Below, one piece after another: positions 1,588 to 61,440 of a stretch of 64,000 bases of DNA. The DNA comes from Ostrinia nubilalis. Taxonomy: Eukaryota > Arthropoda > Insecta > Lepidoptera > Crambidae. A program made the translations under genes and the position numbers. Each line of letters begins with the position of its first letter. The first letter of the stretch is position 1. The notes beneath the pieces are model-generated. The model ran no database searches and was not told the DNA's origin. It saw only the letters and a program-made list of their open reading frames with translations. The stretch is taken from positions 6,178,001 to 6,242,000 of the forward strand of contig NC_087119.1 of the NCBI RefSeq assembly GCF_963855985.1, written 5' to 3'.

Positions 1588-1845
1588 AACTTCCATTCCT
1601 TTCAGTCGCAGTAGATATTGTGTTTCATCTCGTTCACATACAGTGCTACCCCGCACCCCGCACCTCGCACCCTGCACTTGCATTTCATAGGTTTCCTGAT
1701 GTTATATTGATAGTCTGTTTATGTGTATCATGCCAGCTTTGGTGTACCTCTTCGCAACTCCTGCGGCCCTGGTACCGTTGCATCAAGAGTTGCAACTTTG
1801 CAACGGTTGCAAGCAAATTGCTACTTGCAACGGCTGCAGTTGAAG
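1588..1845 (+). repeat. Array unit, 1.6 kb copy
   Basis: The first clear array unit. Block A is at 1590-1610 (CATTCCTTTCAGTCGCA), B at 1622-1632 (GTTTCATCTCG), C at 1646-1675 (repeated CCCCGCAC), and E at 1747-1776 ending CCCTGGTACC. The tail is TTGCA-rich and holds a perfect 9-bp hairpin (ACCGTTGCA 1774-1782 with 1799-1807). A CRE palindrome TGACGTCA lies upstream at 1474-1481. The small ORFs crossing it are not kept in other units, so I do not call a gene. Confidence 0.65.
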
Positions 1846-2560
1846 CCATTGCGTACTAGGCTGGATTCTTGGTCGGGACAATTTTTGTAATTATATTTTA
1901 TTTTTATTTCATTATTACAAATTGAACCGTTACATCTTTGGTTAAATAGTATCTTTTATATATTATTAGAAATTCGGCCAGATAAAAAAATCTGTTTTTT
2001 TATAACTACTTATACAATGTCGCATATCCGCCCGAAATATTCTATGAGTAAATTAAGTATATTCATGAAAAATATATCGAGAAAATCCTTTCCTGTATTA
2101 TTTTTCAAGTTATTCACTTTTCATGTTTGTATGAAAAAAGGTACCTATTCAGTCATTTTTTTCCAAAAAACGTGTTCCAAATAACTTGATAAATAACATA
2201 GTTTGACTCCTGTTGTACCTACATTTTTTGGCCAATTTTTCATGAATGCTTAGAATATTTGGGCGATCACTTACTTAATAATTGCACCTGAGCGACCTAT
2301 TATTGCTTGCAATGAATTTACGGGCAGTAAAACAATATAAAAAAAACCAAATAGTGATTTTAAAATGATCAAACAAATTAAAAATCCTTAAGGTACATAT
2401 TACGAATTTTGTGATTTGTATGCAGTTGTTATGCAGCTATATCAACGTAGAAGAAAATTATAAAAAGTAAAATTTTGTACTTTTCGGTCATTACAGGACT
2501 GACAGTATTTTTTGCAGATTTTTTTCTTTAAACTAAAATATCACATCACAATTAGGTAGG
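1846..2560. other. AT-rich intergenic DNA with a short foldback
   Basis: Very AT-rich. Inverted ends CGCCCGAAATATTCTA (2029-2044) and its near complement (2251-2265) delimit a small foldback of about 240 bp. No gene. Confidence 0.45.
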
Positions 2561-3030
2561 ATGTTTTTAAATAGTTTCATGTATTATTTTTATACGCAGT
2601 TAACAAGTGATAAAAACAATTATTATGTTATTGTCCATCGAACATTTTCCCACACAATTTTAACCATCGCTCCTATTATTTTTACCAGGCTATATACCAC
2701 AGGTGTGGGAAAGTATTATGATAAAAAAATTATAAAAGGTAAATACAATAAAAAGTATTTATTTGCCAACAAATGGTTTACTTACAGTCTGTTCTTCAAG
2801 CGGGTAAGCATTAAATAACAATAAATTAATATCTTTGGACAATTTCACACAGATTTTAGACAATAAATTTTTAATAGACAAATCTTTACGGTCTACTACT
2901 AAAACCCGGTTAAATCTTTATTTTTGTGTGCCGTTTTGTCGGACTCGGCGCACTATCTAGCGATACTCATAATGCCGCGCGCATAACGCGAAGTACCCAC
3001 TTATTTAGTTAAAATATTATCTTACTAATC
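2561..3030. other. AT-rich intergenic DNA, no gene seen
   Basis: An 85-codon open frame (2561-2818) is lysine-, tyrosine- and phenylalanine-rich, as expected from AT-rich non-coding DNA, and shows no domain. Confidence 0.5.
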
Positions 3031-3034
3031 CTAC

Positions 3035-3222
3035 TAATATTATTAATGCAAAAGTGTGGATTTATGTTTGTTACTCTTTAACGCAAAACGCAAAAACAAC
3101 TTAACGGATTTTGATGAAACTTTACAGAATTATTGTTTACACATCAGATAACATAAATAGGCTCTAATTTATAACGATCTGTGCTAAGCGGGCGGAGCCG
3201 TGGGCAAAAGCTAACTCTGTTA
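3035..3222 (+). mobile_element. Non-LTR retrotransposon 3' end fragment
   Basis: Contains the GGATTTTGATGAAACTTTAC segment and ends GCGGAGCCGTGGGCAAAAGC, the 3' terminus typical of lepidopteran RTE-like elements. It shares these segments with 13708-13925, 15652-15848 and 39295-39775. 5' truncated; no coding sequence remains. Confidence 0.6.
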
Positions 3223-3239
3223 TAAAGTTGTTGTTATTT

Positions 3240-3900
3240 TAGTTTAATTATCATGTAGGCACCAAAACGATTGTTAATGCTAATAAAAATATTGTAATTC
3301 CCTCACGTAAGTGAATTGTTGTAATTCTTGAGAGTAATAAAGCCTATTCCTAAACCATAATAAGGTGACCTCGTTAAGGACTCGAAGCTTTAACTTCAAG
3401 CGACCAAATTATTCCGGACGAGTTGTCCCGGCGAATTTCGTTCCGCCAATAAAAAGTTGTCTTAGGTATCTTATAAAATAGCAATAATAACTTTTGAACG
3501 CATCCTCTTTGACACCTAATAATATTTCACAATAGCTGGCTCGGCTAACTTCGGTAAATTAATGTGACCTAACTTATTTATTAACAGTCAATTTTTGAAG
3601 TCTTTTGACTAACTTTTATGAAAATATTTTAAAGCCTATGTTCAGCAAAATTTTTTTTGGAGTCTAATGGTGAGAGAATTTTTCAAATCGGTCCAGTAGT
3701 TTTTCGAAGCTCCAAACAAACAAACAAACGATAAATCTTCTCTTTCCTCTTTATAATTAGTATTGATGGAGATGTGTAGGTACGTGTGACCGAAAGTAGC
3801 GAAACGATGCTACTGACTGAGGAATGGTGTGGGTGAATCCAAATGCCTCTGTGTGAGTTGCAGTTGTTTATGTATTGAAATCGTTGACGTCACAGTGTTA
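3240..3900. mobile_element. Intergenic DNA with an old non-LTR 3' end
   Basis: The part at about 3640-3765 (TCGGTCCAGTAG, then a CAAA-repeat and CTTTATAATTAGTAT) resembles the 3' end of a lepidopteran non-LTR element. The rest is AT-rich without a gene. A CRE palindrome TGACGTCA is at 3885-3892. Confidence 0.4.
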
Positions 3901-3904
3901 TATT

Positions 3905-5338: not shown

Positions 5339-5904
5339 TCAGAATATAATAAGTAAAATCCATGCGCAAAAAAAAAATTTTTTTTTGTCGACCGGTGTTA
5401 TGTTTCATCTCTTACTAGCACAGCACTTCTTGTAACGCTTTCCCCGCCCGCGCTTTTCACGTTTATATGTTACGTGCACCTGTAATAGTATAGAAGCATT
5501 CTCGTCAGCATAGTGGCATAACCATCGCTTACCAGTTCTGGTCTCCTAGTACAATAGTTTCAAAACTGCACTATTTGAACCGAAGTTTAAAGCTGCACAT
5601 GCAATTGATTGAACCATGTACCTTATTCTTACCATGAGTTGTTTGAATCCGAAGCGTTATCATCATTGAATGAACACCTCCTCAATAGTTAAACTATAGT
5701 AGCGACAAAGTTGTATTATCTCGATTTATTTTCATTGTGCAAAAAATGTACTAAGGCAATATTTTTGAGATTTTATCTGAGAGTAGAAGATTTTGTGGTA
5801 GAAGACACACGACTATGTTTACACGTCACGCGATTTACCGGTTAATCTTAAATAAAATTAAAAGCTAATAAAGTAAATAAGTGGTGTAACAACACCACAT
5901 AATA
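5339..5904. other. Intergenic DNA, no gene seen
   Basis: No ORF of note and no element recognised. Confidence 0.45.
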
Positions 5905-8449: not shown

Positions 8450-8770
8450 CATGCCCACGTCATACCGACGTGCTTCGTCTACGTCACGTGCAGTGCTATG
8501 TAATACGTTTGCACTTATACGTACGTAGAGAATCGATTGACGCGATTTGCATCCCTTTCAAACGTACAGAGAATTTAATGTTCTATCTACCTAGTACTTG
8601 CTGCAATGCCCCCGCGCCCCGCACTCCTAGAATAGCTGTTACAGGTGTGTCTGTGAGAGTGTGTCTGACGTCACGTCAACGAGGAAAACGACCTCTTCGC
8701 GAGTTATAGCTCCCTGGTGCTTTTGGCACCGAACTAGGCTTTTGAGTGAAGCTGAAATGCAAGCTGCAAA
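8450..8770 (+). repeat. Array unit, 8.5 kb copy
   Basis: One of the best-preserved units. Block A is at 8550-8560 (CATCCCTTTCA), B at 8581-8590, C at 8606-8625 (GCCCCCGCGCCCCGCACT) and E at 8691-8720 (CTCTTCGCGAGTTATAGC then TCCCTGGTGC). A CRE palindrome lies at 8666-8673. Downstream GGTGC/GCACC can pair as a small hairpin. Confidence 0.65.
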
Positions 8771-9720: not shown

Positions 9721-9785
9721 GTGAGTGACATTGATTTAGACAGAAGCACTCTAGGATACCTATACTACGTTAGCATACTGAATAA

Positions 9786-12425
9786 AGGCAGACTTCTGTC
9801 CCTCTCAGACCTATATGGACAGCTATATTTTGTCTCTTTGCTGCACTACCCCTGCGTCCCGCACACTTACATAATATTTACGGCTACTGCATTCACACAA
9901 ATCAAACGGGTAACCATGGAAACGTATCCCAGAGCCGTACAGTCTCTTCTAGGTAATGCGGTCCTGGTGCTTTCATAGAGAACCCGCACTGTTGCACCGA
10001 TATTGAAATATCGGCTGGCGTCAAATATTTGTTTACATACAAACAGCGGTAACCAAGGGTTACGTTAAAGTTTTGTATAAAGACATGATTTATCTCACTC
10101 ATACCTAGATGAGAATTTATGTTTTGTCTCTGCTGCACCACTACTGCGCCTCGTCCCCTACATATTTGAGTGTAAAACTACTGCATCCACAAACATTCAA
10201 CAGGTAACCATGGAAACGTACCTGAGAGCCATCCAGCCTCTTTTAGGCAATGCGGCCCTGGTGCCTTCATAGAGGAAGCGCGCTGTTGCACCAACATTCA
10301 GCTGTTGCCGTCGAATGTTGTATAAACATAACGCCGTAACCACGACAACGAGTTCCCAGCGAGCCCAACTCCTTGTATTCCTGTTGACATGACTGCTATC
10401 CTTCTCATATCTAGATGAAAACTCATGTTTTGTCTCTGCTGCACCACCAGTGCGCCTCATCCCCTACATATTTTAGAGTATAACTACTGCATCTACAAGC
10501 ATTAAACAGGTAACCATGGCAACGTGTATAACTATCCAGCCTCCTCTAAGCTATGCAACCCTGGTGCCTTCATAGAGTAAGCGCGCTGTTGCACCGACAT
10601 TTCAGCTTTACTAACGTCGAAAGTCTTATAAATACAACGCCGTAACCATGACAACGTGTCCCAAGCGAGTCCAACTTCTTGTATTACTGTTGACATGACT
10701 TCTATCCCTCTCATATCTAGATAAGAACTTATGTTTTGTCTCTGCTGCACCACCAGTGCGCCTCATCCCCTACATATTTTATAGTATAACTGATGCATTT
10801 CCAAACAACAAACGGGTAACCATGGAAACGCATTCTGGACCGTCCAGCCTCTTTTAGGATATGCGGCCCTGGTGCCTTCATAGAGTAAGCGCGCTGTTGC
10901 ACCGACATTTCAGCTTTACTAACGTCGAAAGTTTTATAAATATAACGCCGTAACCATGACAACGAGTTCCCAGTGAGCTCAACTCCTTGTATTCCTGTTG
11001 ACATGACTTCTATCCCTCTCATATAGATGAAAACTCATGTTTTGTCTCTGCTGCAACACCAGTGCGCCTCATCCCCTACATATTTTAGAGTATAACTGCT
11101 GCATCTACAAGCATTAAACAGGTAACCATGGCAACGTGTATAACTATCCAGCCTCCTCTAAGCTATGCAACCCTGGTGCATTGAAAGAGAGTGCGCGCTG
11201 TTGCACCGACATTTCAGTTTTACTTACGTTGAAAGTTTTATAAACACAACGCTATAACCATGACAACGCGTCCCGAGCAAGTCCAACTCCTTGTATGCCT
11301 GCTGACATGACTTCTATCCCTTTCATATCTAGATGAAAACTTATGTTTTGTCTCTGCTGCACCACCACTGCACCTCACCCCCTACATATTTTAGATTATA
11401 ACTGCTGCATTTGCAAACAACAAACGAGTAACCATGGAAACGCATTCTGGACCGTCCAGCCTCTTTTAGGCTATGCGGCCCTGGTGCCTTCATAGAGTAA
11501 GCGCGCTGTTGCACCGACATTTCAGCTTTACTAACGTCGAAAGTTTTATAAATACAACGCCGTAACCATGACAACGAGTTCCCAGTGAGCCCAACTCCTT
11601 GTATTCCTGTTGACATGATTTCTATCCCTTTCATATCTAGATGAAAACTTATGTTTTGTCTCTGCTGCACCACCACTGCGCCTCGTCCCCTACATATTTT
11701 ATAGTATAACTAATGCATTTCCAAACAACAAACGGGTAACCATGGAAACGTATCCGAGAGCCATCCAGCCTCCTCAAACCTATGCGGTTCTGGTGCTTTC
11801 GAAGAGAAGCACGCTGTTGTATCGAAATTTCAGCGTTTCTTTTGTCAAATGTTGCTTATGTCTTTACAAACACGGTAACCAAGTTCAAACTATGTTAACA
11901 TGCTGTGCAAGCTTATATGACAACTAGTGTTTTGTCTCCTTCACTACCCTTGCGTTGTACTACTGCATTCACAAATATTAAACGGGTAACCATGGAAACA
12001 CATCTGAGAGCCGTTCAGCCTCTTCTAGGTTATGCGCTCCTGATAATTCATATGGAACGTGCGCTGTTGCACCGACATTAATTTCAGCTTAGCTGGAGTC
12101 AAATATTATGTTTACAAACAAACACCTATAACCAAGGGCAACCTACGTTAACATACTGTATATTTCTATCCCTCTCAATCCTATACGACAACTTATGTTT
12201 TGTCTCTTTGCTGCACTACCTCTGCGTCTGCGTATAACGGTTGCATTACAAATATCACACCGGTAACCATGGAAACGCATCCTAGAACCATCCAACCTCT
12301 TTTACGATATGCAGTCCCGGTACTTTATACAGAACGCGCGCTGTTGCACCGATATTTCAGGTTTGTTTGCGTCAAATGCTTAGGTACAATCCAACGCCGG
12401 TAACCAAGGGCAACGTGTCCCGCGT
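9786..12425 (+). repeat. Dense tandem array of X-box-bearing units
   Basis: About nine units in tandem with a main period of about 306 bp. In each, the order is block A (TTCTATCCCTTTCATATC type), B (TTTTGTCTCTGCTGCAC), C (GCGCCTCGTCCCCTAC), X-box alpha (GTAACCATGGAAAC type), E (TATGCGGCCCTGGTGC), the segment GCGCTGTTGCACCGACAT, and X-box beta (GTAACCATGACAAC type). Block E lies near 9961, 10256, 10557, 10866, 11172, 11478 and 11790; the 12038 and 12314 copies are degenerate. Small minus-strand frames open in several units (10532-10753, 10729-11022, 11341-11676) look alike because the repeats are alike. They start and end at different blocks and lack upstream structure, so I do not call them genes. 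Confidence 0.85.
9910..12414 (+). promoter_or_regulatory. 18 phased X-box-like (RFX-type) sites
   Basis: Sites match or nearly match GTNRCC-N(0-3)-RGYAAC. They start at 9910, 10049, 10204, 10336, 10510, 10643, 10816, 10950, 11122, 11254, 11428, 11562, 11736, 11875, 11986, 12128, 12263 and 12400. Those at 10510 and 11122 (GTAACCATGGCAAC) and at 12400 (GTAACCAAGGGCAAC) fit the consensus exactly. Most others differ at one position of the right half-site; 11254 and 12128 also lack the leading G. Spacing alternates near 133 and 173 bp. RFX binding is inferred from motif only. Confidence 0.6.
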
Positions 12426-12539: not shown

Positions 12540-12735
12540 CATAAGTACTATGTTAACGCAGAGGTTGAATATTGATATGCTCTCCATCCCTTTCAATCAT
12601 ACCCGATATGAATATTGTTCATCCCTTACGCACCCCCGAATTACACCCAAAATTACATAGATAGCTCTGCGTTTCGCTCCTGACTACCTCCTAAGTTATA
12701 GTTTCCTGGTGCAGTTGTAACTAGTGGTAACAATA
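12540..12735 (+). repeat. Array unit, 12.6 kb copy
   Basis: Block A is CATCCCTTTCAATCA (about 12581-12596), B is TTGTTCATCCCTTAC, C is CGCACCCCCG, and E is AAGTTATAGTTTCCTGGTGC (about 12692-12711). No X-box is present. Confidence 0.6.
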
Positions 12736-14239: not shown

Positions 14240-14420
14240 GCTTATGTAGCGGTTTTATTGATGTGATATCCATCCTTGTCTAGCACATAAAGCCTTCCAT
14301 GTCCCATCCTTGTTATCCGCACTCGTACATAGATTGAACATACATACGCAGTGTGAACTCTAAACACACCTGTACTCCTCAGGAGTTATGGCAGCCTGGT
14401 ACCGATGCTTCGAGTGTAGG
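14240..14420 (+). repeat. Array unit, 14.3 kb copy
   Basis: Block A is GATATCCATCCTTGTCTAGC (14266-14285), B is CCATGTCCCATCCTTGTT, and the C region is reduced to CCGCACTCGTACATAG. E is CAGGAGTTATGGCAGCCTGG (14380-14399) followed by TACC. Confidence 0.6.
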
Positions 14421-18294: not shown

Positions 18295-18445
18295 CGCGTA
18301 ATATCTATTTTCAGGTGTACCCTATCCTTTTCAGTTACCCGTGAAATTTGATATTGCATCCCCTTTACCTGCAGCGATGCCCACCCCCTATATTGTATTA
18401 GTACTTCCTGTATTTTATGAGACCCTGGTACCGTTCGCGGGAACA
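18295..18445 (+). repeat. Array unit, 18.4 kb copy
   Basis: Block A is TATCCTTTTCAGTTACC (about 18321-18337), B is decayed, C is GATGCCCACCCCCTATATTG, and E is TTTTATGAGACCCTGGTACC (18412-18431). Confidence 0.5.
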
Positions 18446-18894: not shown

Positions 18895-19235
18895 GGACTT
18901 CATTGATGTAATATCCATCTCTTTCCACCCTGTAGAGGTTCAAATAATTTACTATTTCAGCAATACCTCCCGTCCCTCGCACACCTGTAGTTTGAATATC
19001 ATATTTACATAGCTCAAATCAAAACAAACAACGATATCTCTTTGTGATTTATGGGAGCCTGGTAGCTTCGAATATTTGACCACGTGGCTGTTATGTAAAA
19101 TACATAAGGCTTATGTATCTAGTCCATTGATTGGTTTCCTGCATCCCTTTCAATCATGTAGAAACTAATTTCCATCCCTTTTATTACGCACCGATGCCTC
19201 TAAGGTCCATATTTGTAGAATACTTTTGACTGTCC
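18895..19235 (+). repeat. Array units, 18.9-19.2 kb (one full, one partial)
   Basis: First unit: A is ATATCCATCTCTTTCCACC (about 18919-18937), C is CTCCCGTCCCTCGCACACC, and E is TTGTGATTTATGGGAGCCTG (19041-19060), followed by GGTAGC and CACGTG at 19081-19086. Second unit: A is TGCATCCCTTTCAATCATG (19140-19158) and C region is GCACCGATGCC. No E is recognisable in the second. Confidence 0.6.
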
Positions 19236-19537
19236 TGCAAACAGTATTTCTTCAATCACTTGCCGAAATCTATAAAAGCTCTAGAAGGTATAGAAAAGGA
19301 AAACCCTTGGTTTTTATGTACTCCTACAGGGGTCCCTTCGTTTTTATGTAAGATATCAATACTGTTCTACAGTTGGTCGAGTACAATGGCACTTGAGGAC
19401 CTCAGATCCTTTGTATTTCTTAGAGACTGCATATCTGCGTTCATTATGTGCCTCACGCAGGACCTCCCTGAGGTTCAGGAGGGTTCTTAAGTGTTATAGG
19501 AATAATTGGATTACTTTTTGGAGGGCTCGTTAAGTGT
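19236..19537. other. Intergenic DNA, no gene seen
   Basis: A 76-codon frame at 19260-19490 shows no domain. Nothing else recognised. Confidence 0.4.
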
Positions 19538-22535: not shown

Positions 22536-22639
22536 ATTAATGCAAAATCAGTCGTAGCTTTTGGGATACTAATGGCTGTACCCGTGTCCACGTGGGACAG
22601 TTTCTACTATTGATTACTTTTAAAGAGGTCATTAATAAT

Positions 22640-22775
22640 ATCGGAAAACCCAACTACGCAACTCGTGTGGATGTCAAGGTTCTATGTACGAGTGCGAGCA
22701 AAAAGGGATGAAACATATCAATCTCTATTTACTTGAAGGGGATAGAAATAACATCGATGGATCTGATACATAGAG
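22640..22775 (-). repeat. Array unit, inverted partial copy
   Basis: Read on the minus strand: GATGTTATTTCTATCCCCTT with CAAG (block A), GTTTCATCCC (B), CTCGCACTCGTACATAG (C) and CACGAGTTGCGTAGTTGGG (decayed E). It is the only clearly inverted unit found. Confidence 0.5.
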
Positions 22776-24034: not shown

Positions 24035-24300
24035 TCCAGAATATACTACGTTAACGTAACGTACGTATCTATTGACCTGATTTCTATCCCTCTCGGACCT
24101 AACAAAGATACTATGTTCCATCTCTTTTTACATGCTGCACTCACCCCACTGCCAGTTTTCACTTGTAAATCTACAAATTACATAGGTAGGTAGTTGCAGT
24201 TTCCAAAACCTCTACGTGACTCATGGTATCCTGGTATATTTGATGCAGAACTGCATTATGCATAATGCAATGCAATTGCATTTGCATGTCGTGCATTTTA
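24035..24300 (+). repeat. Array unit, 24.1 kb copy
   Basis: TACTACGTTAACGTAACGTA leads into block A TTTCTATCCCTCTCGGACC (24081-24099), B TATGTTCCATCTC, C GCACTCACCCCACTGCC and E GACTCATGGTATCCTGGTAT (24219-24238). The tail 24243-24295 is a run of TGCA palindromes (GCATAATGCAATGCAATTGC and ATTTGCATG). Confidence 0.65.
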
Positions 24301-25589: not shown

Positions 25590-25930
25590 AGTCTACGATT
25601 TTGCCTTCCCTCTCAACCATGTTTCACCCCGTTCACAACTTTCAGTATAGGTACTACGTTTCCATAACGTTTGTGTGTACTGACTGACCTGATTTCGGTC
25701 TCTCTTACACCTATCAAAAACGCTATGTTTCGTCTCTTTTAAATGCAGCTCTCACTCCACTACCCCTTCCATAGGTTTCCTACATGTAGAAGTACACAGG
25801 TAGTTTCAGATCCCCGCCAGTCTCTTCATGAGTCCTGGTAGCCTGGTGCATCGGATGCAGAAGTGCATTTTTGCATCCAATCCCCGAAGTGCACTGCAAT
25901 TGCACTTGCACTTGCATCAAGATCAAATTC
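25590..25930 (+). repeat. Array unit, 25.7 kb copy
   Basis: A partial A at 25605-25620 (TGCCTTCCCTCTCAACC) precedes a full unit. A is GACCTGATTTCGGTCTCTCT (about 25686-25705), B is TATGTTTCGTCTCTT, C is CACTCCACTACCCCTTCC, and E is TCATGAGTCCTGGTAGCCTG then GTGC (about 25826-25849). The tail is TGCA-rich: GGATGCA pairs with TGCATCC, and AAGTGCA with TGCACTT. Confidence 0.65.
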
Positions 25931-36019: not shown

Positions 36020-36700
36020 CTTTATCTGTATCCCGTTCAAGCATAGGCACAGTCTGACGTCCTATCTCTGTCCTTCATTCCCAAATTCGCCCGTTTGGAT
36101 TTCCTATTATAGATTTAACTTTGTATGCATGGATTTCACACATACGAGCTTGTCTGGAACAGTTTGCAACGTACCTCCATCGTTTTCTGCGACCCTGGCG
36201 CGTCAAAGCTCTAGCGTGGCCCCCGGATGGATTTACAGTCAAAAACACGAAAACTAGCTCTTTTAAACTCTATTTTAATGGGCTACGAGCTGGATTCAAT
36301 CTTCATTTGCTGCGCAATGTATGTGTCCTAGATGAAATTCACCATAACCCATGGCAAAGAGTCCTTGCCAGTGCGTATTTCCTATTATAGACTTAATTTT
36401 GTGTGCAGGTGTTTCACACATACAAACTTATTTGGAACTGTTTGCAATTTACCACCATCGGTTTCTGCGACCCTAGTGCGTCAAATATCTGTAGCCCCCG
36501 GATGGATTTACAATCGTGAACTCAAAAAAGAGCTCCCTTTTTAACCCTATTTCAAGGGGCTATGAGCTGGATTCAACCTTTATGTGCTGTATACTGTATG
36601 TACCACAAACAAATATCACCATGGCCATAGTCCTTGCCAGTGCGATCTTGGTACCCTAACAGGACGCACGGCTTTTATGCTCCGTAATTTCCATCTCCTA
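36020..36700 (+). repeat. Array units, long subtype, two in tandem (36.0-36.7 kb)
   Basis: Unit 1: A is TATCCCGTTCAAGCATAGGC, B is CCTATCTCTGTCC, then TTCACACATACGAGCTTGTC, E GCGACCCTGGCGCG (about 36189), CCCCGGATGGATTTACAGTC and GAGCTGGATTCAATCTTC. Unit 2 starts at about 36395 with the TTTCACACATAC block, E GCGACCCTAGTGCG (about 36468), then CCCCGGATGGATTTACAATC. CCAAT and X-box are lost here. Confidence 0.65.
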
Positions 36701-36925
36701 GTGCTTATGGGTTCGTGGATATACCTTTCTCATTCCATCACCATCTGTCTGTCTCTATTAGCACCAATACACTCACAGAGAGTTATCGATACAGAGACTG
36801 CGTGTGTGTGTGACACAACTGTTTGTTGCAGCGCGGGCTTCGCCAGTGCATTTTTGAAAGCCTAACATGATGCACGTTTTTGCTCTGTAATGCCACCCCT
36901 TAGTGTCTATGGGTCCCTGGTCTAG
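36700..36925 (+). repeat. Array unit, third subtype, 36.8 kb copy
   Basis: ATATACCTTTCTCATTCCAT, CATCTGTCTGTCTCTATTAG, GACACAACTGTTTGTTGCAG, CGCGGGCTTCGCCAGTGCAT, then E-like ATGGGTCCCTGGTC (36899-36912). Nearly the same sequence is at 38995-39195; diverged copies lie at 41.8, 44.9 and 58.0 kb. Confidence 0.6.
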
Positions 36926-37019: not shown

Positions 37020-37785
37020 AATGCCTGCGCTGCCTTACTCTGGCTTTCATTCTAGCCTCCGCTACTGGTTACATATTATACTGGTTCTTATAGCCTATTG
37101 AATCTGATATTTGACTTTGTAAATAAGTCTTACGCATTTAAATTTTAACCTGCGGTTAGCTACGACGTTTTATGTATCTGCGATTAGCTACGACGCGTAG
37201 ACAGATCTGCTACGAAATGCTACGAAGGAGTTTGCTGTCTACTAAATGCAATGCAATGCAATGCAATTAAATGGATGAAAAGAAAAACAATATATCCACC
37301 CATGTTGACCCATGTCCACCAAGTAGAATGGATGCAAAAAACGCAACTTGCATCTAGTGAAGCAAGCTCTTGCATCTTGACATCATATTATTCTAGTAGT
37401 TTAAAGGTATCCGAGTTAATTTTCAGTTTTAAAAAGTCAAATAACAATTATTCAAAAAATATAGGAAACATTTAGTTATTGGGTGTGTAACTATTTATGT
37501 TTGAGTTATATACTCCTATTATTATTCCAGAAATGCCTTGTGTGCATTGTGGTGCAGCTAGCTGCAAATAGGCTGAATGCAATTAATAAAGGTTTAATTG
37601 ATTAACTTAATTAATGTTTAAAAAAATTATTATTCTTACGCTCTTTTTCCGCCTAGGAGGAGATGTAAGGTACTTAATTACATTAATGTCTGTATAATTA
37701 ACCGATATAGCTGTAGATGCAACTACTAGATCTAACCGGTGACCTACATACGAAGCTTTCTGGTGATATTTAGTCATTAGTATCA
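37020..37785. other. Start of the second copy of a higher-order duplication
   Basis: 37160-37240 is a TACGA-type palindrome. From about 37290 the order of landmarks (GAATGGATGCAAAAA, AAATGCCTTGTG, TGCAGCTAGCTGCAAAT) follows 35090-35350. No gene. Confidence 0.45.
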
Positions 37786-37789
37786 GTTA

Positions 37790-37805
37790 CTGCCACCTAG
37801 TGTCC
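37790..37805 (-). promoter_or_regulatory. CTCF-like motif
   Basis: The minus strand reads GGACACTAGGTGGCAG, a close match to the CTCF core. Related sites at 38106-38121 and 43449-43464 sit in the same repeated context (GTTACTGCCACC, then ACGGTGCCTCA or ACGGTGGCTCA downstream). Confidence 0.4.
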
Positions 37806-38105
37806 TGAAACGGTGCCTCATTGTACCACACTACAGAGTGGTTTACATGCTGTTAATGTGGGGTTGGTTAGTAGTCAGTACGTAGGTTCAGGTCTAGATG
37901 GCAGTTAATTAGTGTTTCCTGAATTTAGAGGTTTCTAAAAATATTTTTTCTCGTTCATTTCTTGGGCAAAAGATATATTATTGTTGGAGATGTTCGTTTT
38001 GTACGACTGACCAATATAGCTGAAGTTTTGACTAAATAAGAAGTCCGAACTTTGACCTACGATTACGAAGGTTTTTGTGATTTACCGTATCATATTTACC
38101 AGTTA

Positions 38106-38121
38106 CTGCCACCTTGTGTCC
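38106..38121 (-). promoter_or_regulatory. CTCF-like motif
   Basis: The minus strand reads GGACACAAGGTGGCAG; one base differs from the 37790 site. Confidence 0.35.
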
Positions 38122-38149
38122 TGAAACGGTGGCTCAATGTACTATTAGT

Positions 38150-38345
38150 ACAGGGTTGTTACTTGCTGTCAATGAGGGGTTAGTTAATAGTCAGTACTTA
38201 AGTTCGGGTCTAGATGTCAGGTAATAAGCGTTTCAAAGTAGAATAAAAAATAAATCTTGATGATGAAACATAATTTTCCGAGCAGCTTTTTAGCAAAAAT
38301 TGCACAAAAACTTTCAGAAGGGTTGGTTATTAAATAAATTTATTA
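38150..38345 (+). repeat. Recently duplicated segment D, copy 2
   Basis: Near-identical to 35573-35790, with a handful of differences (for example GAAACATAATTTTCC versus GAAACGTTATTTTCC). The identity is much higher than between array units, so the duplication is younger than the array. Confidence 0.65.
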
Positions 38346-38659: not shown

Positions 38660-39200
38660 TACTGACGTTATATCCCGTTCAAGCATAGGCACAGTTTGGC
38701 GTCCTATCTCTGTGCTTCAATCCCAAATTCTCGCGTTTGGATTTCCTATAGATTTAACTTTGTATGCATGGGTTTCACACATACGAGCTTGTCTGGAACA
38801 GTTTGCAACGTACCACCATCGTTTTCTGCGACCCTAGTACATCAAAGCTCTAGCAAGGTCCCCGGATGGATTTACAATAGTGAACTCAAAAAAGAGCTCC
38901 CTTTTAAACCCTATTTCAAAGGGCTATGAGCTGGATTCAACCTTCATTTGCTGTACACTGTATGTATCACAAATATCACTATAGCCATAGTCCTTGCCAG
39001 GAGCTCGTGGATATACCTTTCTCATTCCATCACCATCTGTCTGTCTCTATTAGCACGAATACATTTACAAAGAGCTATAGATACAGAGACGTGTATGTGT
39101 GACACAACTGTTTGTTGCAGCGCGGGCTTTGCCAGTGCATTTTTGAAAGCCTAATCAATAATGCCACCCCTTGGTATCTATGGGTCCCTGGTCTACTAAT
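38660..39200 (+). repeat. Array units, long plus third subtype (38.7-39.2 kb)
   Basis: Near copy of 36020-36365 followed by a near copy of 36700-36920. Landmarks: TATCCCGTTCAAGCATAGGC, GTCCTATCTCTGTGC, TTCACACATACGAGCTTGTC, E GCGACCCTAGTAC (about 38827), CCCCGGATGGATTTACAATA, GAGCTGGATTCAACC, GACACAACTGTTTGTTGCAG, and final E ATGGGTCCCTGGTC (39179-39192). Confidence 0.65.
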
Positions 39201-41499: not shown

Positions 41500-42060
41500 T
41501 GACAACACTGACCTTGTGTGCGTGCACTTCACACATACTAGCTCGTTTGGAATTGTTTGCAACCTACCACCATCGGTTCCTATTACCCTGGTACTTCAAA
41601 GCTCGTGCGAGGACCCCGGATGGATTTACAATGGTGAACACGAAAAATAGCTCCCTTTTCAACTCTATTTCAATTGACTAGGAGCTGGATTAAACCCTCT
41701 TTTGCTGTACACTGTATTTAGCTACGTGTACCAAATGAACCAATCAAAACGTCGCAAGGACCGTTCAACGAGGAGTTGCGTGTATTTGTCCAACAACTGT
41801 TTGCTAGCCCGGGCTTTTCCAGTGCCTCCTTGAACGCCTAACAGGATGCAACGTTTTTGGGTTCCGGGAAGCCGCTTTCTTGCGTTTATGAGTTCATAGC
41901 AATACCTTTCTCCCTCTATTACACGCATCTGTCTCCACTCAAGCACCAATACCAATACATGTATAAAATGATGACACATGACATTGAACATGTTCAAGTG
42001 TGAATCAAGGATTCGCTGCCACGCTACGCGAGCTGTGCCAGTTATACTAGAGATAATTAA
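41500..42060 (+). repeat. Array units, long plus third subtype (41.5-42.0 kb)
   Basis: TTCACACATACTAGCTCGTT, E TATTACCCTGGTACTTC (about 41581), CCCCGGATGGATTTACAATG, GAGCTGGATTAAACCCTC, a CCAAT box (41740), then CAACTGTTTGCTAGCCCGGG and an end resembling the third subtype. Frames on both strands have no domain. Confidence 0.6.
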
Positions 42061-42899: not shown

Positions 42900-43175
42900 T
42901 TCAATCTGTTATCACTTGAATGGGATTTTCATCCTCCTCAAACCTAGGAAACATCATGTCTATTCGTCTCGTTTACTCGTTGCAGCACTGCCCCCGCGTC
43001 CCGCACTTGTACCTAGATATTCTAGTAATGCAGATATTGCACAGGCAGATGTGTGCTTCCTGGTAGCAAACCACCTCTTCAAGAGTGCTTTTATCCTGGT
43101 AGTGTAGTTGCAAAAATGCATTACTTGCATGCACCGTAGTGCAGCAAACTGCACATGCAATTGCAATATGACCTT
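42900..43175 (+). repeat. Array unit, TL subtype, 42.9 kb copy
   Basis: A is TTCATCCTCCTCAAACCTAG (42928-42947), B is TTCGTCTCGTTTACTC, C is TGCCCCCGCGTCCCGCACTT (42989-43008), and E is CTTCAAGAGTGCTTTTATCC then TGGTAG (about 43076-43101). The tail is TGCA-rich (TGCACCGTAGTGCA). Confidence 0.7.
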
Positions 43176-43640
43176 AATGTCCTTCTGTTATCTTTCTTTT
43201 TCTAAGAGTCAAAAATAACATTTATTATTTTTCTTAATTAAAAATAATGCACATTGCACCTATTCATCAATACGGGGTTTGGTTTTTGGGTGTGCATGTG
43301 CAACAGTATGCATTTATCCTACATTTGTATGAACATTAAATTACTTGTTATTAAAAAATATATATTTGCATCAAAGTGTCCTATAAGGTTTTGTAACTTA
43401 GGTACCGTGTTATATTCGTATTATATGGCTAACCATTAGTGCCGGTTACCGCCACCTAGTGTCCATCCACGATGGCTCCTCGTCCTGCCCTGTGGTTTAA
43501 ACAGGGTTGTTACTTGTACGTGAGATTTGGTACTAACTGGTCTGAAATTCATTAAACCTTTTATTGTTCTAATCCATTTCCAGATGTCAGTTAGTAAACG
43601 TTTCAGAGCCAGACAAATGTCTATTAAGAACTTATCAGGA
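43176..43640. other. AT-rich DNA with a diverged copy of segment D
   Basis: 43430-43620 repeats landmarks of segment D (ACAGGGTTGTTACTTG, GATGTCAGTTAGTAAACGTT). Confidence 0.45.
43449..43464 (-). promoter_or_regulatory. CTCF-like motif
   Basis: The minus strand reads GGACACTAGGTGGCGG, the third site of the same repeated context (37790, 38106). Confidence 0.4.
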
Positions 43641-44140: not shown

Positions 44141-45115
44141 GACTGTGTGCGAGTGACGAGTATTTCGAAAAAATACACGATCTACGTAATATCATTGGTT
44201 GTGCCATCCCAGTACTTAATAGCACGTTCGTGCCAGAACCCATGGATTACAGTCGTAAACACGACAAAGTGGTCACTTTTGCGACCCTATCTCAACGGGA
44301 TTCAAGCTAGATTCATCTTTCTCTTGCTGAGCATTGTATTTTAATTCGTGCACCCAGTGGACCAATCAAAAACATGATGTATCAACTATATAGGAATGTA
44401 TTGGTGTGTATAAGTTATACATGCACATGAATCTGATAGTAGCCATGGAAACCGCGTCCTTAGTTGGTGACAGGTTAATTTGATGCCACCTCTTGGTGCT
44501 TCATGTTTTCCCTGTTCTCTTGTTACTAAATGTACCTGTCGTGGCTTGTTATATAGAAAGTTAGATATACTGGAAACAACTATTACTTCAACGGTTGCTA
44601 AGGGTAACGCGTCCTATATGTTTATGTGAGATGTTTGCTCCTGGTATTTATGAGCTCTTTCCTTCCTCCCTGTAAGTGCATCTATCTGTCCTTCTCCTTT
44701 TACTTCCTAGTGTTCAGTTCTCTCAACCCTTTCTCCTTCCATCTTACACATCTGATCCTACTAGCACCAATACATTTACAAAGACATATTGATATAGATA
44801 CATGCACAATTGCACATGTGTGTGAAACAAGGCTTTACAGCTACGCGGACTTTGGCATTACGTTCATGAAAGCCTAACGGGATGCACCACTTTTGTGCTC
44901 CATAAATGCCACCGCCTAGTATTTATGACGTCACAGGTACAGCCATCTCATTTTATCACCGGTATCTGTCTCTATACTACAATGACCTATCGATACAGAG
45001 TAATGTTTATGTGTGAATCTCAGGATTTGCCAGTGTATTCGGAATTCGGTGTAACGGGATGCATTACTGTTATGCTGCGTAAAGAGACCTCTTAGAACTT
45101 ATGGGATCCTGGTTC
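44141..45115 (+). repeat. Array units, long and third subtypes (44.1-45.1 kb)
   Basis: CCCATGGATTACAGTCGTAA, ACCCTATCTCAACGGGATTC, a CCAAT box (44362), X-box-like GTAGCCATGGAAAC (44439-44452), a second X-box-like GTTGCTAAGGGTAAC (44594-44608), then third-subtype sequence with TGACGTCA (44926) and E-like TATGGGATCCTGGTTC (about 45098-45113). Confidence 0.55.
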
Positions 45116-45349
45116 ACTAAATACATGGTTGATTTATGTACTTCTGTAAATGATTTATATTTTATTATGTAAGAAGTGGTCATTGACCTATCAACGCCTA
45201 ACCCGAACTATTGGATCTAGAAAGCGAATTTTTTCTCACGTGTTTATAGACGATGAATTAGAAAGGAATATTCGAAATTCAGCCCTCAAATACAAATAAG
45301 TTTATTAGCTCAATATTTATAAAAGTAAAAAATATATTTTACGTCTTTA

Positions 45350-48769: not shown

Positions 48770-49040
48770 CGTTTCAACTTGAATGAAATTTCCATCCCAC
48801 TCAAACCTAGTAGACGTTATGACTGTTCATCTCTTTTGCTCGTTGCAGCACTGCCCCCGCGCCCCGCACTTGTACATAGACATCCTAGTAATGCAGATAT
48901 TGCACAGGCAGATGTGTGCTTCCCGGTAGCAATGAAGACCACCTCCTCACGAGTTCTGTAATCCTGGTACAGTGGTTGCAAAAACGCATTACTTGCATTG
49001 CACTGCAGCTGCCGAAGAGGCTGCAGCACCATGACCTCAC
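48770..49040 (+). repeat. Array unit, TL subtype, 48.8 kb copy
   Basis: A is TCCATCCCACTCAAACCTAG (48791-48810), B is TTCATCTCTTTTGCTC, C is TGCCCCCGCGCCCCGCACTT (48852-48871), E is CTCCTCACGAGTTCTGTAAT then CCTGGTAC (48943-48970), and the tail is GGTTGCAAAAACGCATTACT with TGCATTGCACTGCAG. Very close to the 59.5 kb unit. Confidence 0.7.
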
Positions 49041-49932: not shown

Positions 49933-49938
49933 TATAAA

Positions 49939-50789: not shown

Positions 50790-51600
50790 CTGACGCAACG
50801 TCCCTTTCTACCACGTGCGGACTTCAGCATTCTATCTCTGTTGGTTGCGGAATGGCATCTGTGTGCGTGCGGCATCACACTTCTGTAAAACTATTTTTCA
50901 CAGTTGAACAAATTATTTCTTCACAATTTATAGTCTCCTGGTACCCTGGCTCGAATCTCGGCCCACGTGCAGCGTTTTGTTAAAAATACGTAGTCAGTAT
51001 GACGTCATCCGTTTTCCTTTCTGTTGGTTGCGGAATAACATTTGTGTGCGTGCGGCATCACACTGCTGTAGAAATATTTTTCACAGTAGAACATATTAAA
51101 TATTTCTTCACAATTTATAGTCTCCTGGTACCCTGGCTCGAATCTCAGCCCACGTGCAGCGTTTTGTTAAAAATACGTAGTCAGTTTATGACGTCATCCA
51201 TTTTCCTTTCTGTTGGTTGCGGAATAACATCTGTGTGCGTGCAGCATCACACTTCTGTAGAACTATTTTTCACAGTAGAACAATTTAAATATTTCTTTAC
51301 AATTTATAGTCCCCTGGTATCGTAGCTCGAATCTCAGCCCACGTTCAGTGTTTTGTTCAAAATACGTAGCGAGTTGATGACGTCATCCGTTTTCCTTTCT
51401 GTTGGTTGCGGAATGTCATCTGTGTGCGTGCGGCTTCACACTTCTGTAAAACTATTTTTCACAGTAGAACAAATTAAATATTCCTTCACAATTTATATTC
51501 TCCTGGTACCGTAGCCCGAATCTCAGCCCACGTGCAGCTTTTTGTTAAAAATACGTAGTAGCGAGTTTATGACGTCATCTGTTTACAGACAATTAAGTTT
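50790..51600 (+). repeat. Array: four tandem units of about 190 bp
   Basis: TTGGTTGCGGAAT recurs at about 50840, 51023, 51214 and 51402. Each unit has B (TTCTATCTCTG or TTTTCCTTTCTG), GCATCACACTTCTGTA, TTTTCACAGTAGAAC, E (CTTCACAATTTATAGTCTCC then TGGTACC), CTCGAATCTCAGCCCACGTG and a TACGTAG stretch. The last three are each preceded by a perfect CRE fused to block A (TGACGTCATCCG or similar, at 51000, 51189 and 51378); another CRE is at 51570. CACGTG is at 50964, 51151 and 51529; the third copy has CACGTT. A 108-codon frame through two units simply follows the repeat. Confidence 0.8.
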
Positions 51601-52589: not shown

Positions 52590-52905
52590 TTCGCAAAACG
52601 CATTGAGAGATGCATGTGGTGGTGCCCCACACTTATAGAAAATATGTGCGTCACATGTTTTCTCACACACGAGCTTGTTCCGAATATTTTGCAAACCTAC
52701 CACCATCGTTTCCTGCGACCCTAGTGCATGAAACCTCGTACGAGAACCCCGGATGGATTTACAGTCGTAAACACGAAAAACGGCTACATTTTCGACCCTA
52801 TTTCAATGGTCTACGAGCTGGATTCAACCTTCTTTTGCTGTGTACTGTATTTAGCTACATGCACAAATGGACCAATCAAAACATCCCAGACGAAATTCGT
52901 AACGA
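52590..52905 (+). repeat. Array unit, long subtype, 52.7 kb copy
   Basis: TTTCTCACACACGAGCTTGT, CCACCATCGTTTCCTGCGAC with E CCCTAGTGC (about 52719), CCCCGGATGGATTTACAGTC, GAGCTGGATTCAACCTTC and a CCAAT box (52872). A 145-codon frame (52610-53047) runs through it and into the copia LTR; other copies of the unit do not keep this frame. Confidence 0.65.
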
Positions 52906-53158: not shown

Positions 53159-53162
53159 GGTT

Positions 53163-57599: not shown

Positions 57600-58205
57600 T
57601 AGTTCGGTTTTCAGTTAACTACATGTTACGGATTGGTGTGCGTACGTCTATACATGAATTAGCTGGTAGCCATGGAAATGCATTGTTAGCGTCCTGTCCT
57701 GTCATCCATGTAGGAAGTGCGCAGTTGAAACAACCAACGCTAAGACCGTTGCCAAGGGTAACGCGTCCCAATTGTTTGCGTGGCATTGCTGCTACCTCTT
57801 CATTCGTGCTGCACTCCTGGTACAGTTGGAACATGTTAAGACAGGTGATTTCTTGATCTTTGCCAACCTCTTCTTGAAAAGAGTACGATGAGAGCATCCT
57901 TAAGATGCTAATAAAAGTTTATTTTTTATTTTTTTATTTTGCAAGATTTTTTGTGTCACGCATCTGTCTGAAACCACTAGCTGTGGCGCGAGTTCTACCA
58001 GTGTATTCTTGAAAGCCTAACAGGGTGCTCCAAAAAGCCACCAACCTATACCTTTCTCCCATTATCTCCCGCATCTGTCTCTATTAGCATCAATCCTACA
58101 TTTACAAAAGCCTGTCGTAACGAAAGTGTGCCTATGTATGCGTGAAACACGCGGGCTTTGCCAGTGCGGTCTTGAGAGCGCAACGGGATGCATCGTTTTT
58201 TTCCT
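57600..58205 (+). repeat. Array units, X-box and third subtype (57.6-58.2 kb)
   Basis: First part: GTAGCCATGGAAAT (57666-57679), a perfect X-box GTTGCCAAGGGTAAC (57748-57762), ACCTCTTCATTCGTGCTGC and E-like ACTCCTGGTACAG (57815-57827). Second part (57970-58205): GTGTATTCTTGAAAGCCTAA, CATCTGTCTCTATTAGCA, GCGGGCTTTGCCAGTGCG, as in the third subtype. Confidence 0.55.
57748..57762 (+). promoter_or_regulatory. X-box (RFX-type) motif, exact consensus
   Basis: GTTGCCAAGGGTAAC fits GTNRCC-N3-RGYAAC at every position. It is followed by GCGTCCCA, as are the X-boxes at 44594 (GCGTCC) and 12400 (GTGTCC), showing common origin. Binding is not demonstrated. Confidence 0.5.
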
Positions 58206-58469
58206 ACAAAATAACATATCAGGATCTATGTATTGTGGTAGATTAGGTTAGGTTATGTATACAAACACGGACTTTCATCGGTGACTCATGCCATTTACAA
58301 TGACAATGACAGTCAAAAAAAGAGAAAATTGTATGAATTAATTTTATGATGAATGTCCTTTTTTACCGAAATACTAATTTATTTCAAAACTTATCCTCTT
58401 TGCGCTTTCTCTTTTATTTCATAAGCAAACATTCTAAACAAAAATGGTTTTTACAATGTTTCATGTTTC
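58206..58469. other. Intergenic DNA, no gene seen
   Basis: Nothing recognised beyond the short TTAGGTTAGG at 58243. Confidence 0.4.
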
Positions 58470-59465: not shown

Positions 59466-59469
59466 GAAC

Positions 59470-59745
59470 AATGTTCGACTTGAATGTGATGTCCATCCCG
59501 CTCAAACCTAGAGGCCATTACGACTATTCATCCCTTTTACTCGTTGCAGCACTGCCCCCGCGTCCCGCGCTTGAACATAGATATCCTAGTAATGCAGATA
59601 TTGCATTTGTCACTGTGTGCTTCCCGATAGCAATGGACGACGACCTCCTCACGAGTTCTGATGTCCTAGTACAGTAGTTGCAAAAATGCATTACTTGCAC
59701 CGTAGTTGCAGGCTGAAAATTAACTTGCAATTATCCTGCAATACT
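59470..59745 (+). repeat. Array unit, TL subtype, 59.5 kb copy
   Basis: A is TCCATCCCGCTCAAACCTAG (59491-59510), B is TTCATCCCTTTTACTC, C is TGCCCCCGCGTCCCGCGCTT (59552-59571), E is CTCCTCACGAGTTCTGATGT then CCTAGTAC (59645-59672), and the tail is TGCAAAAATGCATTACTTGC. Confidence 0.7.
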
Positions 59746-60395
59746 TCTTAGTTACCTTACCTTTAGCCCGAAACTTTCAAAATAACAAATAATAAATTTT
59801 GAGATATACTAAATTTAAATTATTATGTTCAAAATTAATTTCAATAATAAGTTTTTTATGATAATAATTAGAATAAGTGTACAAGCTCACTTATTATAAT
59901 TATTATCATAAAAAACTTATTCTTATTATTGGGTACGTAATTTATTTTATAGATAGCAAATTTTTTCTTGCATTATGCTAGGATGGAAGAGGTTTTTGAT
60001 ATTTTGTATGTTACTACGACTAATATATTTAGCTGAAAAAAATAAAATAGAAGTCGGTGGAGGCAAACTTCACACGTTTCATAATCTTAGCACCGACTAA
60101 TCATGATATACATTTATGAATTCGTCCTAATAAATAAGTAATTAGTAAATTATTTTTCTACTTTTTAGAGCATGTTTTTTTGGAGTTGGTTTTATTATTT
60201 TTTATTAAAATTATATCGCTATTAAATGCAATACTGCCTTACTCCTTGCTGCATTTATCTGGGAAAAATAGATGTGTGTTTTAATAGTAATAACATTATG
60301 TTATTAAAGAAGCAGCCAAGTATAGAGTGGTTTCAACTTATAGATGAAAATTATGTAGACAATATTATACGTTGAGGCTACCTTTTTGTACTCGT
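59746..60395. other. AT-rich DNA with a strong palindrome
   Basis: 59844-59930 folds back: AATAATAAGTTTTTTATGAT and ATCATAAAAAACTTATTCTT. The rest shows no gene. Confidence 0.5.
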
Positions 60396-60399
60396 ACAC

Positions 60400-60945
60400 G
60401 TGTGAAAGTTCTTCACATTTGTAGTTGTGTCGAGTGCAATATGCAATACCATGCAATAAATATTACTCTTCAAAACTGTGATTTCCTGGTGTCGATATGT
60501 ACTCATATAAATTGGACCACGTGACTGAGTTATGTAATACCACGGTAATACACAAAGCTCATGTACGAAGTTTATTGACGTGACATGCATCCCTTACAAT
60601 CATTTGTGTAGATCTGAACATTCTGTCTCTGTTGTATTTGTGTGCGGCGCGGCGGTGCGTCTGTGTGCCGCATCCCATTCCAGTTTTGTTTTTCACAGAG
60701 AAAAATTTATCTCTTCACAATTTATAGTTCCCTGGTACTTTGGTTCGCAACTCAGCCCACGTGGAAAATTTTTCTTACATTAAATGTATCCCTTTCAGGC
60801 TTAGAGAGTTTTGAACGTTCGTTCTATCTCTGTTTTATGTTTTTGCCAGTATGGTTTATAACTAAAAGTGGTTGTCGTGATTTTCTCCTAAAAACTTAAT
60901 GCATCCAGGTGTAGTTGCTTCTGAACTAGGCCTATGAAACTCTAT
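60400..60945 (+). repeat. Array units, 60.4-60.9 kb (two full, one partial)
   Basis: Unit 1: E is AAAACTGTGATTTCCTGGTG (60472-60491) with CACGTG at 60518. Unit 2: A is ATGCATCCCTTACAATCATT, B is ATTCTGTCTCTGTTG, C-like GCCGCATCCCATTCCAG, E is CACAATTTATAGTTCCCTGG (60716-60735), CACGTG at 60758. Unit 3: A is TGTATCCCTTTCAGGCTTAG (60785-60804), B is TTCTATCTCTGTT, then lost. Units 2-3 match the 50.8-51.6 kb array. Confidence 0.65.
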
Positions 60946-61199
60946 GTTGTGCCGTTAAGCAAGATGTTTTAAAAACATTAAATAAATATTTTATCCTCAA
61001 CCAAATATGAATAACATTTCTGTTTGAATTACACTTTTTTCGTTCTTGTCGTTTTGAAAGTAAAAAAGTCCAAAACTATTGAAGTTTCAGATATTGGCAT
61101 CAAAATATACGATAATCCCTTTCCTACTTCAATTTTCGTCATAATTTGTTTATTAATCTACAACAGAACTAGCTAAGTACCTTTACGTAAGTGTTACGT

Positions 61200-61440
61200 T
61201 AAAAGTGTGGGTGTTTTGATACGTGACCTTGGTACGTACTGCGCACGCTATGTTGTCTCGCTTATCATCCCTTAGTTTCTGTGTAACATTGGGTATGTCC
61301 ATCTCTCTTTATTTCAGTGCATGGAATGCATTGGTATATTTCAGACTCTTCGCAGTTCATAGTGCTCTGGTAGTCTAGGTTCGCTAATTTCGGTGCGACT
61401 GCACTTACCATGCCACTGAAATGGGAGGTTATTTCGAGGA
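61200..61440 (+). repeat. Array unit, 61.3 kb copy, with covarying hairpin
   Basis: A is TTATCATCCCTTAGTTTCTG (61261-61280), B is TCCATCTCTCTTTATTTCAG, and E is CTTCGCAGTTCATAGTGCTC then TGGTAG (about 61347-61372). The tail holds ATTTCGGTG (61387-61395) and CACTGAAAT (61414-61422), pairing over 9 bp with the same internal G-T pair as the 29.6 kb unit. Confidence 0.65.

What the first reader, a model, noticed from the sequence alone, without database searches (positions are those of the whole stretch)
1588..61440. An oriented array of about 50 diverged modules spans the whole window
The same ordered blocks (A CATCCCTTTCAA, B TTCTATCTCTGTT, C CCCCGCGCCCCGCAC, E TTATAGTTCCCTGGTAC) recur from 1.6 to 61.4 kb, nearly always on the + strand. 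Between blocks the sequence is poorly conserved while the blocks stay recognisable, as expected if the blocks are under selection. Dispersed transposons would be in both orientations with defined ends; these units have neither feature. I know no family that matches. It may be a locally amplified regulatory locus or a repetitive non-coding RNA gene.
Basis: seen in the sequence. Interest (0 to 1): 0.88.

Follow-up and report, generated by a model that had tools for sequence, protein, structure and literature searches.

The report
Nested, oriented array of noncoding repeats
A 60-kilobase stretch of what looks like a moth or butterfly genome holds dozens of old, diverged copies of one short noncoding module, nearly all pointing the same way and partly in a fixed repeating order, so it grew by local tandem duplication; what it does is not yet known.

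Summary
A 188-column profile of the unit finds 42 + strand matches at E<1e-3 between 1.6 and 60.8 kb, against one independent - strand match; the reversed window gives almost nothing. 18 of 20 steps follow it and 0 of 20000 permutations reach that. Orientation and order are therefore explained by nested tandem duplication; transposition fits poorly.

Block columns defined without a subfamily differ less within it (five of five sets), but the effect is modest and not uniform, so selection is likely, not proven. No RNA structure was found, and 20 ORFs give no domain above its cut-off. Modules carry E-box-, bZIP- and X-box-like motifs, some at fixed offsets, which favours a DNA-level regulatory array, though shared descent alone could explain that.

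Interest is moderate; the function is inferred.

The parts
247..279 (+). weak match, E end of a decayed module
   Evidence: profile E 0.024
1589..1789 (+). module; TGCA-rich tail to 1866
   Evidence: profile E 7e-20; tail
5395..5570 (+). module; TGCA-rich tail to 5607
   Evidence: profile E 1e-12; tail
8545..8738 (+). module, blocks A, B, C, E; E-box 66 bp upstream of A
   Evidence: profile E 4e-30
9766..12422 (+). S3 tandem array, about 306-bp period, nine module matches from 9793 to 12340, each with an X-box-like GTAACCATGG(A/C)AAC
12583..12718 (+). module
   Evidence: profile E 1.5e-12
14266..14420 (+). module
   Evidence: profile E 7e-15
18322..18443 (+). module
   Evidence: profile E 1.5e-10
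18911..19248 (+). two adjacent modules (18911-19071 and 19140-19248), each the other's best match, E-box and TTATGTA motifs between them
22617..22749 (-). the one independent firm module copy in opposite orientation
   Evidence: profile E 2e-8
24080..24254 (+). module, TGCA-rich tail to 24290; best match is 25699
25699..25866 (+). module, TGCA-rich tail to 25916; best match is 24080
26559..26732 (+). module; best match is 27339
27339..27511 (+). module; best match is 26559; E-box 59 bp upstream of A
28423..28821 (+). two adjacent modules (28423-28577 and 28641-28821), each the other's best match; E-box 60 bp upstream of the second A
29580..29697 (+). decayed module, A and E recognisable only; not among the 49
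   Evidence: very weak profile matches, E 6.3 and 0.05; read
30483..30624 (+). module
   Evidence: profile E 2e-9
31213..31254 (+). weak match, E end of a decayed module
   Evidence: profile E 0.013
31921..31964 (+). weak match, A end of a decayed module
   Evidence: profile E 0.026
32018..32193 (+). module
   Evidence: profile E 1e-17
32818..33205 (+). two modules (32818-32953 and 33051-33205)
   Evidence: profile E 1e-7 and 6e-24
33967..34133 (+). S2 module 3' part (weak, E 0.0012) plus S2 tail
34294..34341 (+). weak match, A-B end of a module
   Evidence: profile E 0.025
34419..34728 (+). S2 module plus S2 tail
34755..34854 (+). S5 3' part
34911..35159 (+). S1 module plus TGCA-rich tail
35556..35668 (+). 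C repeat, 3' part
36025..36606 (+). S2 module and tail, then a second partial S2 module and tail
36630..36924 (+). S5 3' part, then S5 module
37741..38238 (+). two C repeats; CTCF-like site (one mismatch) at 37790 on the - strand
38671..38970 (+). S2 module plus tail
39013..39196 (+). S5 module
41515..41725 (+). S2 module 3' part plus tail
41771..42042 (+). S5 3' part, then S5 5' part
42925..43166 (+). S1 module plus TGCA-rich tail
43423..43608 (+). C repeat; CTCF-like site (one mismatch) at 43449 on the - strand
44242..44346 (+). S2 tail; X-box-like site follows at 44439
44728..45117 (+). two S5 modules; the second overlaps a weak match to the first profile (45087-45113, E 0.02)
48788..49025 (+). 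S1 module plus TGCA-rich tail
50801..51584 (+). S4 tandem array, 189-bp period, four modules with E-box and TGACGTCA motifs
52627..52869 (+). S2 module 3' part plus tail
57953..58232 (+). S5 3' part, then S5 module
59489..59730 (+). S1 module plus TGCA-rich tail
60583..60755 (+). S4-like module, last full one in the window
   Evidence: profile E 5e-20
60785..60834 (+). weak match, A-B end of a module
   Evidence: profile E 0.023

Best explanation
Shown: a locus-scale, decayed, nested tandem array of related copies of one noncoding module (core about 190 bp, period about 190-310 bp where intact), arranged at two levels: single modules, and a multi-module unit S1 > (C or S4) > S2 > S5. Transposons interrupt it. 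Inferred: the modules act at DNA level as a clustered cis-regulatory array, each a platform for several sequence-specific factors (E-box-like, bZIP-like and X-box-like sites plus pyrimidine-rich blocks A, B, C and E), setting expression or domain structure at this locus, with copy number turning over by duplication while the block order is kept. I put the array part at about 0.9 and the regulatory part at about 0.4, the figure given below.
For: Orientation 42:1 against a near-empty control. Cyclic order 18 of 20 steps, 0 of 20000 permutations, and 0 of 3000 when the best order is re-chosen for each permutation. Companion repeats are all +: S2 tail 8/0, S5 10/0, C 4/0. Neighbouring modules are each other's best match in four pairs. 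Held-out block columns differ less in five of five sets; by rank with circular shifts, S3 (42 of 2000), S4 (11) and adjacent pairs (0) stand out. TTGACGTGA-like (<=2 mismatches) just 5' of A in 13 of 25 modules (random anchors mean 0.54, max 3; shifted anchors mean 0.54, max 2); CACGTG at -80..-45 in 5 of 25 (random 0.20, max 2; shifted 0.32, max 3). X-box-like GTNRCCNNRGNAAC: 11 found, all +, 0.12 expected per strand, nine of them in one array. No RNA fold signal; no Pfam domain above its cut-off in 20 ORFs.
Against: Motifs shared by descent are not independent sites, so motif enrichment could be inheritance alone. The strict (C/T)TTATGTA motif 5' of A (4 of 25) does not beat its shifted control (max 5). 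S2 shows no slower block evolution (894 of 2000 shifts reach it) and S1 is borderline (108). Aligned 30-bp flanks are as slow as blocks in S1, S3 and S4. Identity between higher-order copies is mosaic, as gene conversion would give. No flanking gene was identified, and no expression, chromatin or second-genome evidence could be had.
Confidence: 0.4

Rival explanations
1. A functionless, decayed satellite-like array: tandem duplication, gene conversion and transposon insertion explain copy number, orientation, order and patchy similarity; blocks are just slowly mutating or recently converted stretches.
For: Nested duplication alone gives orientation and order. Mosaic identity between higher-order copies. 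Flanks as slow as blocks in three sets, and S2 fails the rank test.
Against: The 24080/25699 pair stays alignable at 67% over about 290 bp around the module, and no longer match between them is among the listed ones (top 60 listed). Block columns from other subfamilies predict the slow columns in S3, S4 and adjacent pairs.
Confidence: 0.33
2. A long noncoding RNA gene whose repeated exons or RNA domains are the modules, acting as RNA (for example by binding proteins at linear motifs).
For: Strict strandedness; the + strand of modules is pyrimidine-rich (58.2% against 50.2% outside); local repeats are reported as highly enriched in lncRNAs (PMC4820808, passages read).
Against: No fold signal: mean z -0.09 on + and 0.15 on - over 38 of 42 modules. 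Alignment z lies between -1.33 and 0.47 in nine of ten tests; the tenth, S2 on +, is -2.54; the two mixed-set tests among the nine gave no fold at all and say little. No conserved splice-site pair was seen by eye in the alignments; GTAAGT occurs once on + in module regions against 3.7 expected.
Confidence: 0.18
3. A short nonautonomous transposon family with insertion preference for itself or for one strand.
For: A diverged interspersed repeat is most often a transposon (general knowledge); one firm copy is inverted.
Against: 42:1 orientation, fixed multi-repeat order, similarity fades at the edges of S1 copies rather than stopping sharply (by eye). Pattern scans of two contig collections gave no convincing relative, which is weak evidence since these collections are viral and prokaryotic.
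Confidence: 0.06

Closest known systems
Local repeats of the mammalian Firre locus (R0, RRD; PMC4820808, abstract and passages read)
   Same: Several diverged repeats with many instances inside one noncoding locus; one (R0) is reported as an enhancer-like element bound by CTCF and other factors
   Different: Firre is a transcribed, named gene with repeats tied to exons and introns; here no transcript is known, module sub-types are related to one another and follow a cyclic order, and confinement to the locus is untested
DXZ4-type macrosatellites (titles and abstract starts in a search listing only)
   Same: Tandem repeat locus with regulatory-type sites; two CTCF-like sites with one mismatch each occur in the C repeats here
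   Different: DXZ4 is recalled to have far longer, more uniform units; the CTCF-like sites here are few
Lepidopteran satellite DNAs (PMC8042265, abstract read)
   Same: Tandem noncoding repeats, in one species at a single autosomal locus
   Different: Here the copies are strongly diverged, low in number, interrupted by transposons, and keep ordered blocks
Silkworm Fem piRNA precursor (PMC8360546 abstract start in a listing; PMC7926724 two passages; tandem copies on W are recalled)
   Same: A repeated noncoding locus of a lepidopteran (recalled)
   Different: Stated in the listing to be missing in a close relative of B. mori; no resemblance to this module was or could be tested

Membership tests
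Dispersed transposon family | copies in both orientations | tested here: not met
   42 + and one independent - at E<1e-3, in this window only
Dispersed transposon family | many copies genome-wide | not testable with these tools
Dispersed transposon family | sharp ends and target duplications | tested here: inconclusive
   S1 edges fade gradually by eye; target duplications were not searched for
Tandem (satellite-like) array | head-to-tail copies with neighbours most alike or a higher-order unit | tested here: met
   similarity does not fall with plain distance (Mantel rho -0.03, 499 of 2000, 31 of 42 modules), which fits like modules sitting one higher-order unit apart
Satellite DNA sensu stricto | high copy number with near-identical units | tested here: not met
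   about 50 copies; of 42 modules compared, 4 match no other by BLAST at E<=1e-3 and many others only at 32-77 bits; TRF reports only the two short-period sub-arrays. Copies outside the window could not be counted
Structured noncoding RNA | conserved or unusually stable fold | tested here: not met
   (S2 on + alone at z -2.54); no Rfam match over the modules above gathering score; one chance-level match over an S1 tail, 24 bits against 176
Cis-regulatory array | slower change at motif positions than between them | tested here: inconclusive
   mostly met, S2 not by rank; flanks not faster in S1, S3, S4
Cis-regulatory array | factor binding, open chromatin or enhancer activity | not testable with these tools
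   no functional data held
Firre-like local repeats | repeat confined to one locus | not testable with these tools
   own genome could not be searched
Protein-coding gene cluster | recognisable coding domain or protein relatives | tested here: not met
   20 ORFs of 95-178 aa without a Pfam match above its cut-off, one match below it (Chorismate_bind, 16.6 bits, cut-off 27); one module ORF without a protein relative at E<=1. 20 of 56 ORFs of 85 aa or more were tested, the Copia frame apart

The most novel reading that the evidence does not exclude
A single-locus organiser in an insect genome: an array of some fifty multi-site modules, kept in one orientation and partly in a cyclic higher-order arrangement, that works as a long-range regulatory or chromosome-structuring element (Firre- or DXZ4-like in action, of independent origin).
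Probability: 0.1. Interest if true: 0.8.

Novelty: new variant of a known kind. Interest (0 to 1): 0.45.

Why it matters
If the blocks are under selection, this is a natural series of some fifty diverged copies of one regulatory module in one place, from which the essential positions can be read within a single genome. It would also give insects a counterpart to the repeat loci that shape mammalian chromosomes. If not, it is a clear example of how nested tandem duplication alone can mimic an ordered functional array, a useful caution for genome annotation.

Tried and rejected
Rejected or without result: structured RNA; coding exons; a splice-site reading of blocks A and E (by eye: A mostly ends CAA, and the GT after CCTG is not followed by AAGT); relatives in other collections by pattern: viral contigs 1 and 3 stretches, of which only L004 has a match to the profile at E<=1 (E 0.015, over the A-B stretch that the pattern itself asked for); 0 in two further viral scans; 0 in genome contigs. 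Block letters in papers: 56 papers hold at least one of six strings, 20 listed, none of those about this by title (listing only). Other paper searches, listings only: (0 papers). A distance-decay test was negative. The comparison of three higher-order copies was meant as a selection test but shows mosaic identity, so it decides nothing. The strict (C/T)TTATGTA motif did not beat its shifted control; the looser CTTATGTAG with <=2 mismatches did (12 of 25 against at most 6).

Rows dropped and choices made: the alignment behind holds 43 rows, the 42 firm matches plus 33967 (E 0.0012 in the two-strand search). Its distance test left out 11 of 42 modules of the two short-period arrays. One search counted the S3 array once (25 of 32 anchors). 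One search folded 38 of 42 modules (those over about 120 bp). One search compared 42 of 49 matches. I read 1-44900 of the window letter by letter, not 44901-64000.
Full report
OBSERVATION. The blocks are present and nearly all on the + strand. An iterative profile built from 11 seed units settles at 42 + strand matches at E<1e-3 from 1589 to 60755. On the - strand there is one independent firm match at 22617-22749, a short one inside a + module (28675-28724) and a weak one at 58946-59026 (E 0.005). The reversed window gave at most one match at E<1 in any of six rounds. The profile is 188 columns long and 32 of the 42 matches are near full length. Seven weaker + matches bring the number to 49 at E<0.03.

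ANATOMY. In order on the + strand: a TTATTGACGTGA-like stretch; A, ATCCCTTTCA; B, TTYYATCTCTTT; C, GCTGCACTRCCCC-GCGCCCCGCAC; a middle block (ACATAGGTA, or in S3 GGTAACCATGGAAACG); and E, ACCTCTTCA-GAGTTATGG--CCTGGTAC. In closely spaced pairs a CACGTG and a TTATGTA motif lie between E of one module and A of the next. Five CACGTG sites lie 59-71 bp 5' of an A block. After E, several modules have a TGCA-rich tail: 8 + matches and one - at E<1e-3, the latter over a palindromic stretch inside a + match.

SUBFAMILIES AND HIGHER ORDER. S3 is a 306-bp array and S4 a 189-bp array. S1 has four copies (34.9, 42.9, 48.8 and 59.5 kb; local pairs 75-85% alike; alignment). S2 carries its own 126-bp tail, with 8 + and 0 - matches; S5 has 10 + and 0 -; the C repeat 4 + and 0 -. 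Right of 33.9 kb these follow S1 > (C or S4) > S2 > S5 > S1: 18 of 20 class steps fit; permutations average 6.6 with a maximum of 15, and 0 of 20000 reach 18; 0 of 3000 reach it when the best order is chosen for each permutation. The classes were labelled after inspection and only right of 33.9 kb. Left of this the S2 tail, S5 and C repeats have no match, and the array shows neighbour pairs and S3 instead. Neighbouring modules are mutual best matches at 18.9/19.1, 24.1/25.7, 26.6/27.3 and 28.4/28.6 kb. Similarity does not fall with plain distance. Nested tandem duplication explains orientation and order without selection.

IS ANYTHING SELECTED? With block columns defined without the subfamily in question, the most informative third of columns differs less than the least informative third in all five sets under direct pairwise alignment: S1 0.138/0.231, S2 0.090/0.117, S3 0.143/0.240, S4 0.126/0.157, adjacent pairs 0.196/0.287. 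By rank with circular shifts as control, adjacent pairs (0 of 2000), S4 (11) and S3 (42) stand out, S1 is borderline (108) and S2 is not (894). Against this, aligned 30-bp flanks are about as slow as block columns in S1, S3 and S4 (0.148, 0.149, 0.135; S2 0.150; adjacent 0.261), and the adjacent pairs lose nearly half their columns to gaps. Higher-order copies are mosaic, with stretches of 90-100% beside stretches of 50-60% in one pair, which also fits gene conversion. My reading: selection likely, not shown.

DNA OR RNA? Single modules fold no better than dinucleotide shuffles: mean z -0.09 (+) and 0.15 (-), 38 of 42 modules. Of ten alignment tests nine lie between -1.33 and 0.47, two of them without any fold, and S2 on + gives -2.54. 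Rfam gives only three tRNAs above gathering scores, none over a module. Palindromic, factor-like motifs are enriched in modules with 90/40-bp flanks (21% of the window): CACGTG 13 inside against 3.7 expected, four of them in the S4 array, and 4 outside against 5.4; TGACGTCA 6 against 0.2 inside, four of them in the S4 array, and 5 against 0.5 outside, so not only there; TTAYRTAA 5 against 1.8 inside. The names of factors are recalled, and because copies share ancestry the counts are not independent. Nine of eleven strict X-box-like sites belong to S3, the others (34250, 44439) to the S2/S5 part. No domain above its Pfam cut-off in 20 ORFs tested, of 56 ORFs of 85 aa or more; a six-frame scan was not accepted.

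HOST. The Copia element inside the array has its closest named protein in Plutella xylostella (53%), with an unnamed one at 87% (best 120 listed), which fits Lepidoptera but does not prove it.

COMPARISON. The nearest kind in print that I read is the local repeats of Firre (PMC4820808: abstract and passages), where one repeat is reported to act as an enhancer bound by CTCF and another as an RNA nuclear-retention signal. That this array works like such local repeats is a hypothesis; confinement to one locus, their defining feature, could not be tested. Lepidopteran satellites (PMC8042265, abstract) are the other near kind; low copy number in the window and high divergence set this array apart. 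The listings seen showed no title that describes this module; papers outside the listed rows and outside this library were not seen.

VERDICT. A real, nested, oriented, diverged array; origin by tandem duplication well supported; function inferred. The decisive genome-wide count remains undone.

Noticed in passing
53019-57405: Copia LTR retrotransposon with one open frame of 1274 aa and 144-bp terminal repeats 99.3% alike, so probably a young insertion into the array.
   Followed up: partly
19764-22146: Large inverted repeat with 1.1-kb arms 96.9% alike and a short spacer; a second one at 61472-62622 with 434-bp arms 96.3% alike. Probably foldback DNA transposons.
   Followed up: no
46185-46833: 178-bp tandem repeat, 3.7 copies, 96% matches, with no match to the module profile.
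   Followed up: no
535-719 and 5881-6103: Two copies of a roughly 230-bp repeat, each with a perfect CTCF-like CCACTAGATGGCAG (650 and 6027; none in 30 shuffles).
   Followed up: partly
17371-17444, 23013-23085, 39828-39900: Three tRNA-like matches; the first two lie in a pair of inverted repeats of about 150 bp, 83.6% alike, the third reads as tRNA-Ala(GGC).
   Followed up: no
29888-30069: Stretch matching the Rfam miRNA family MIR7996 on both strands but far below its gathering score (42 and 29.9 against 119 bits); looks like a small inverted-repeat transposon.
   Followed up: no
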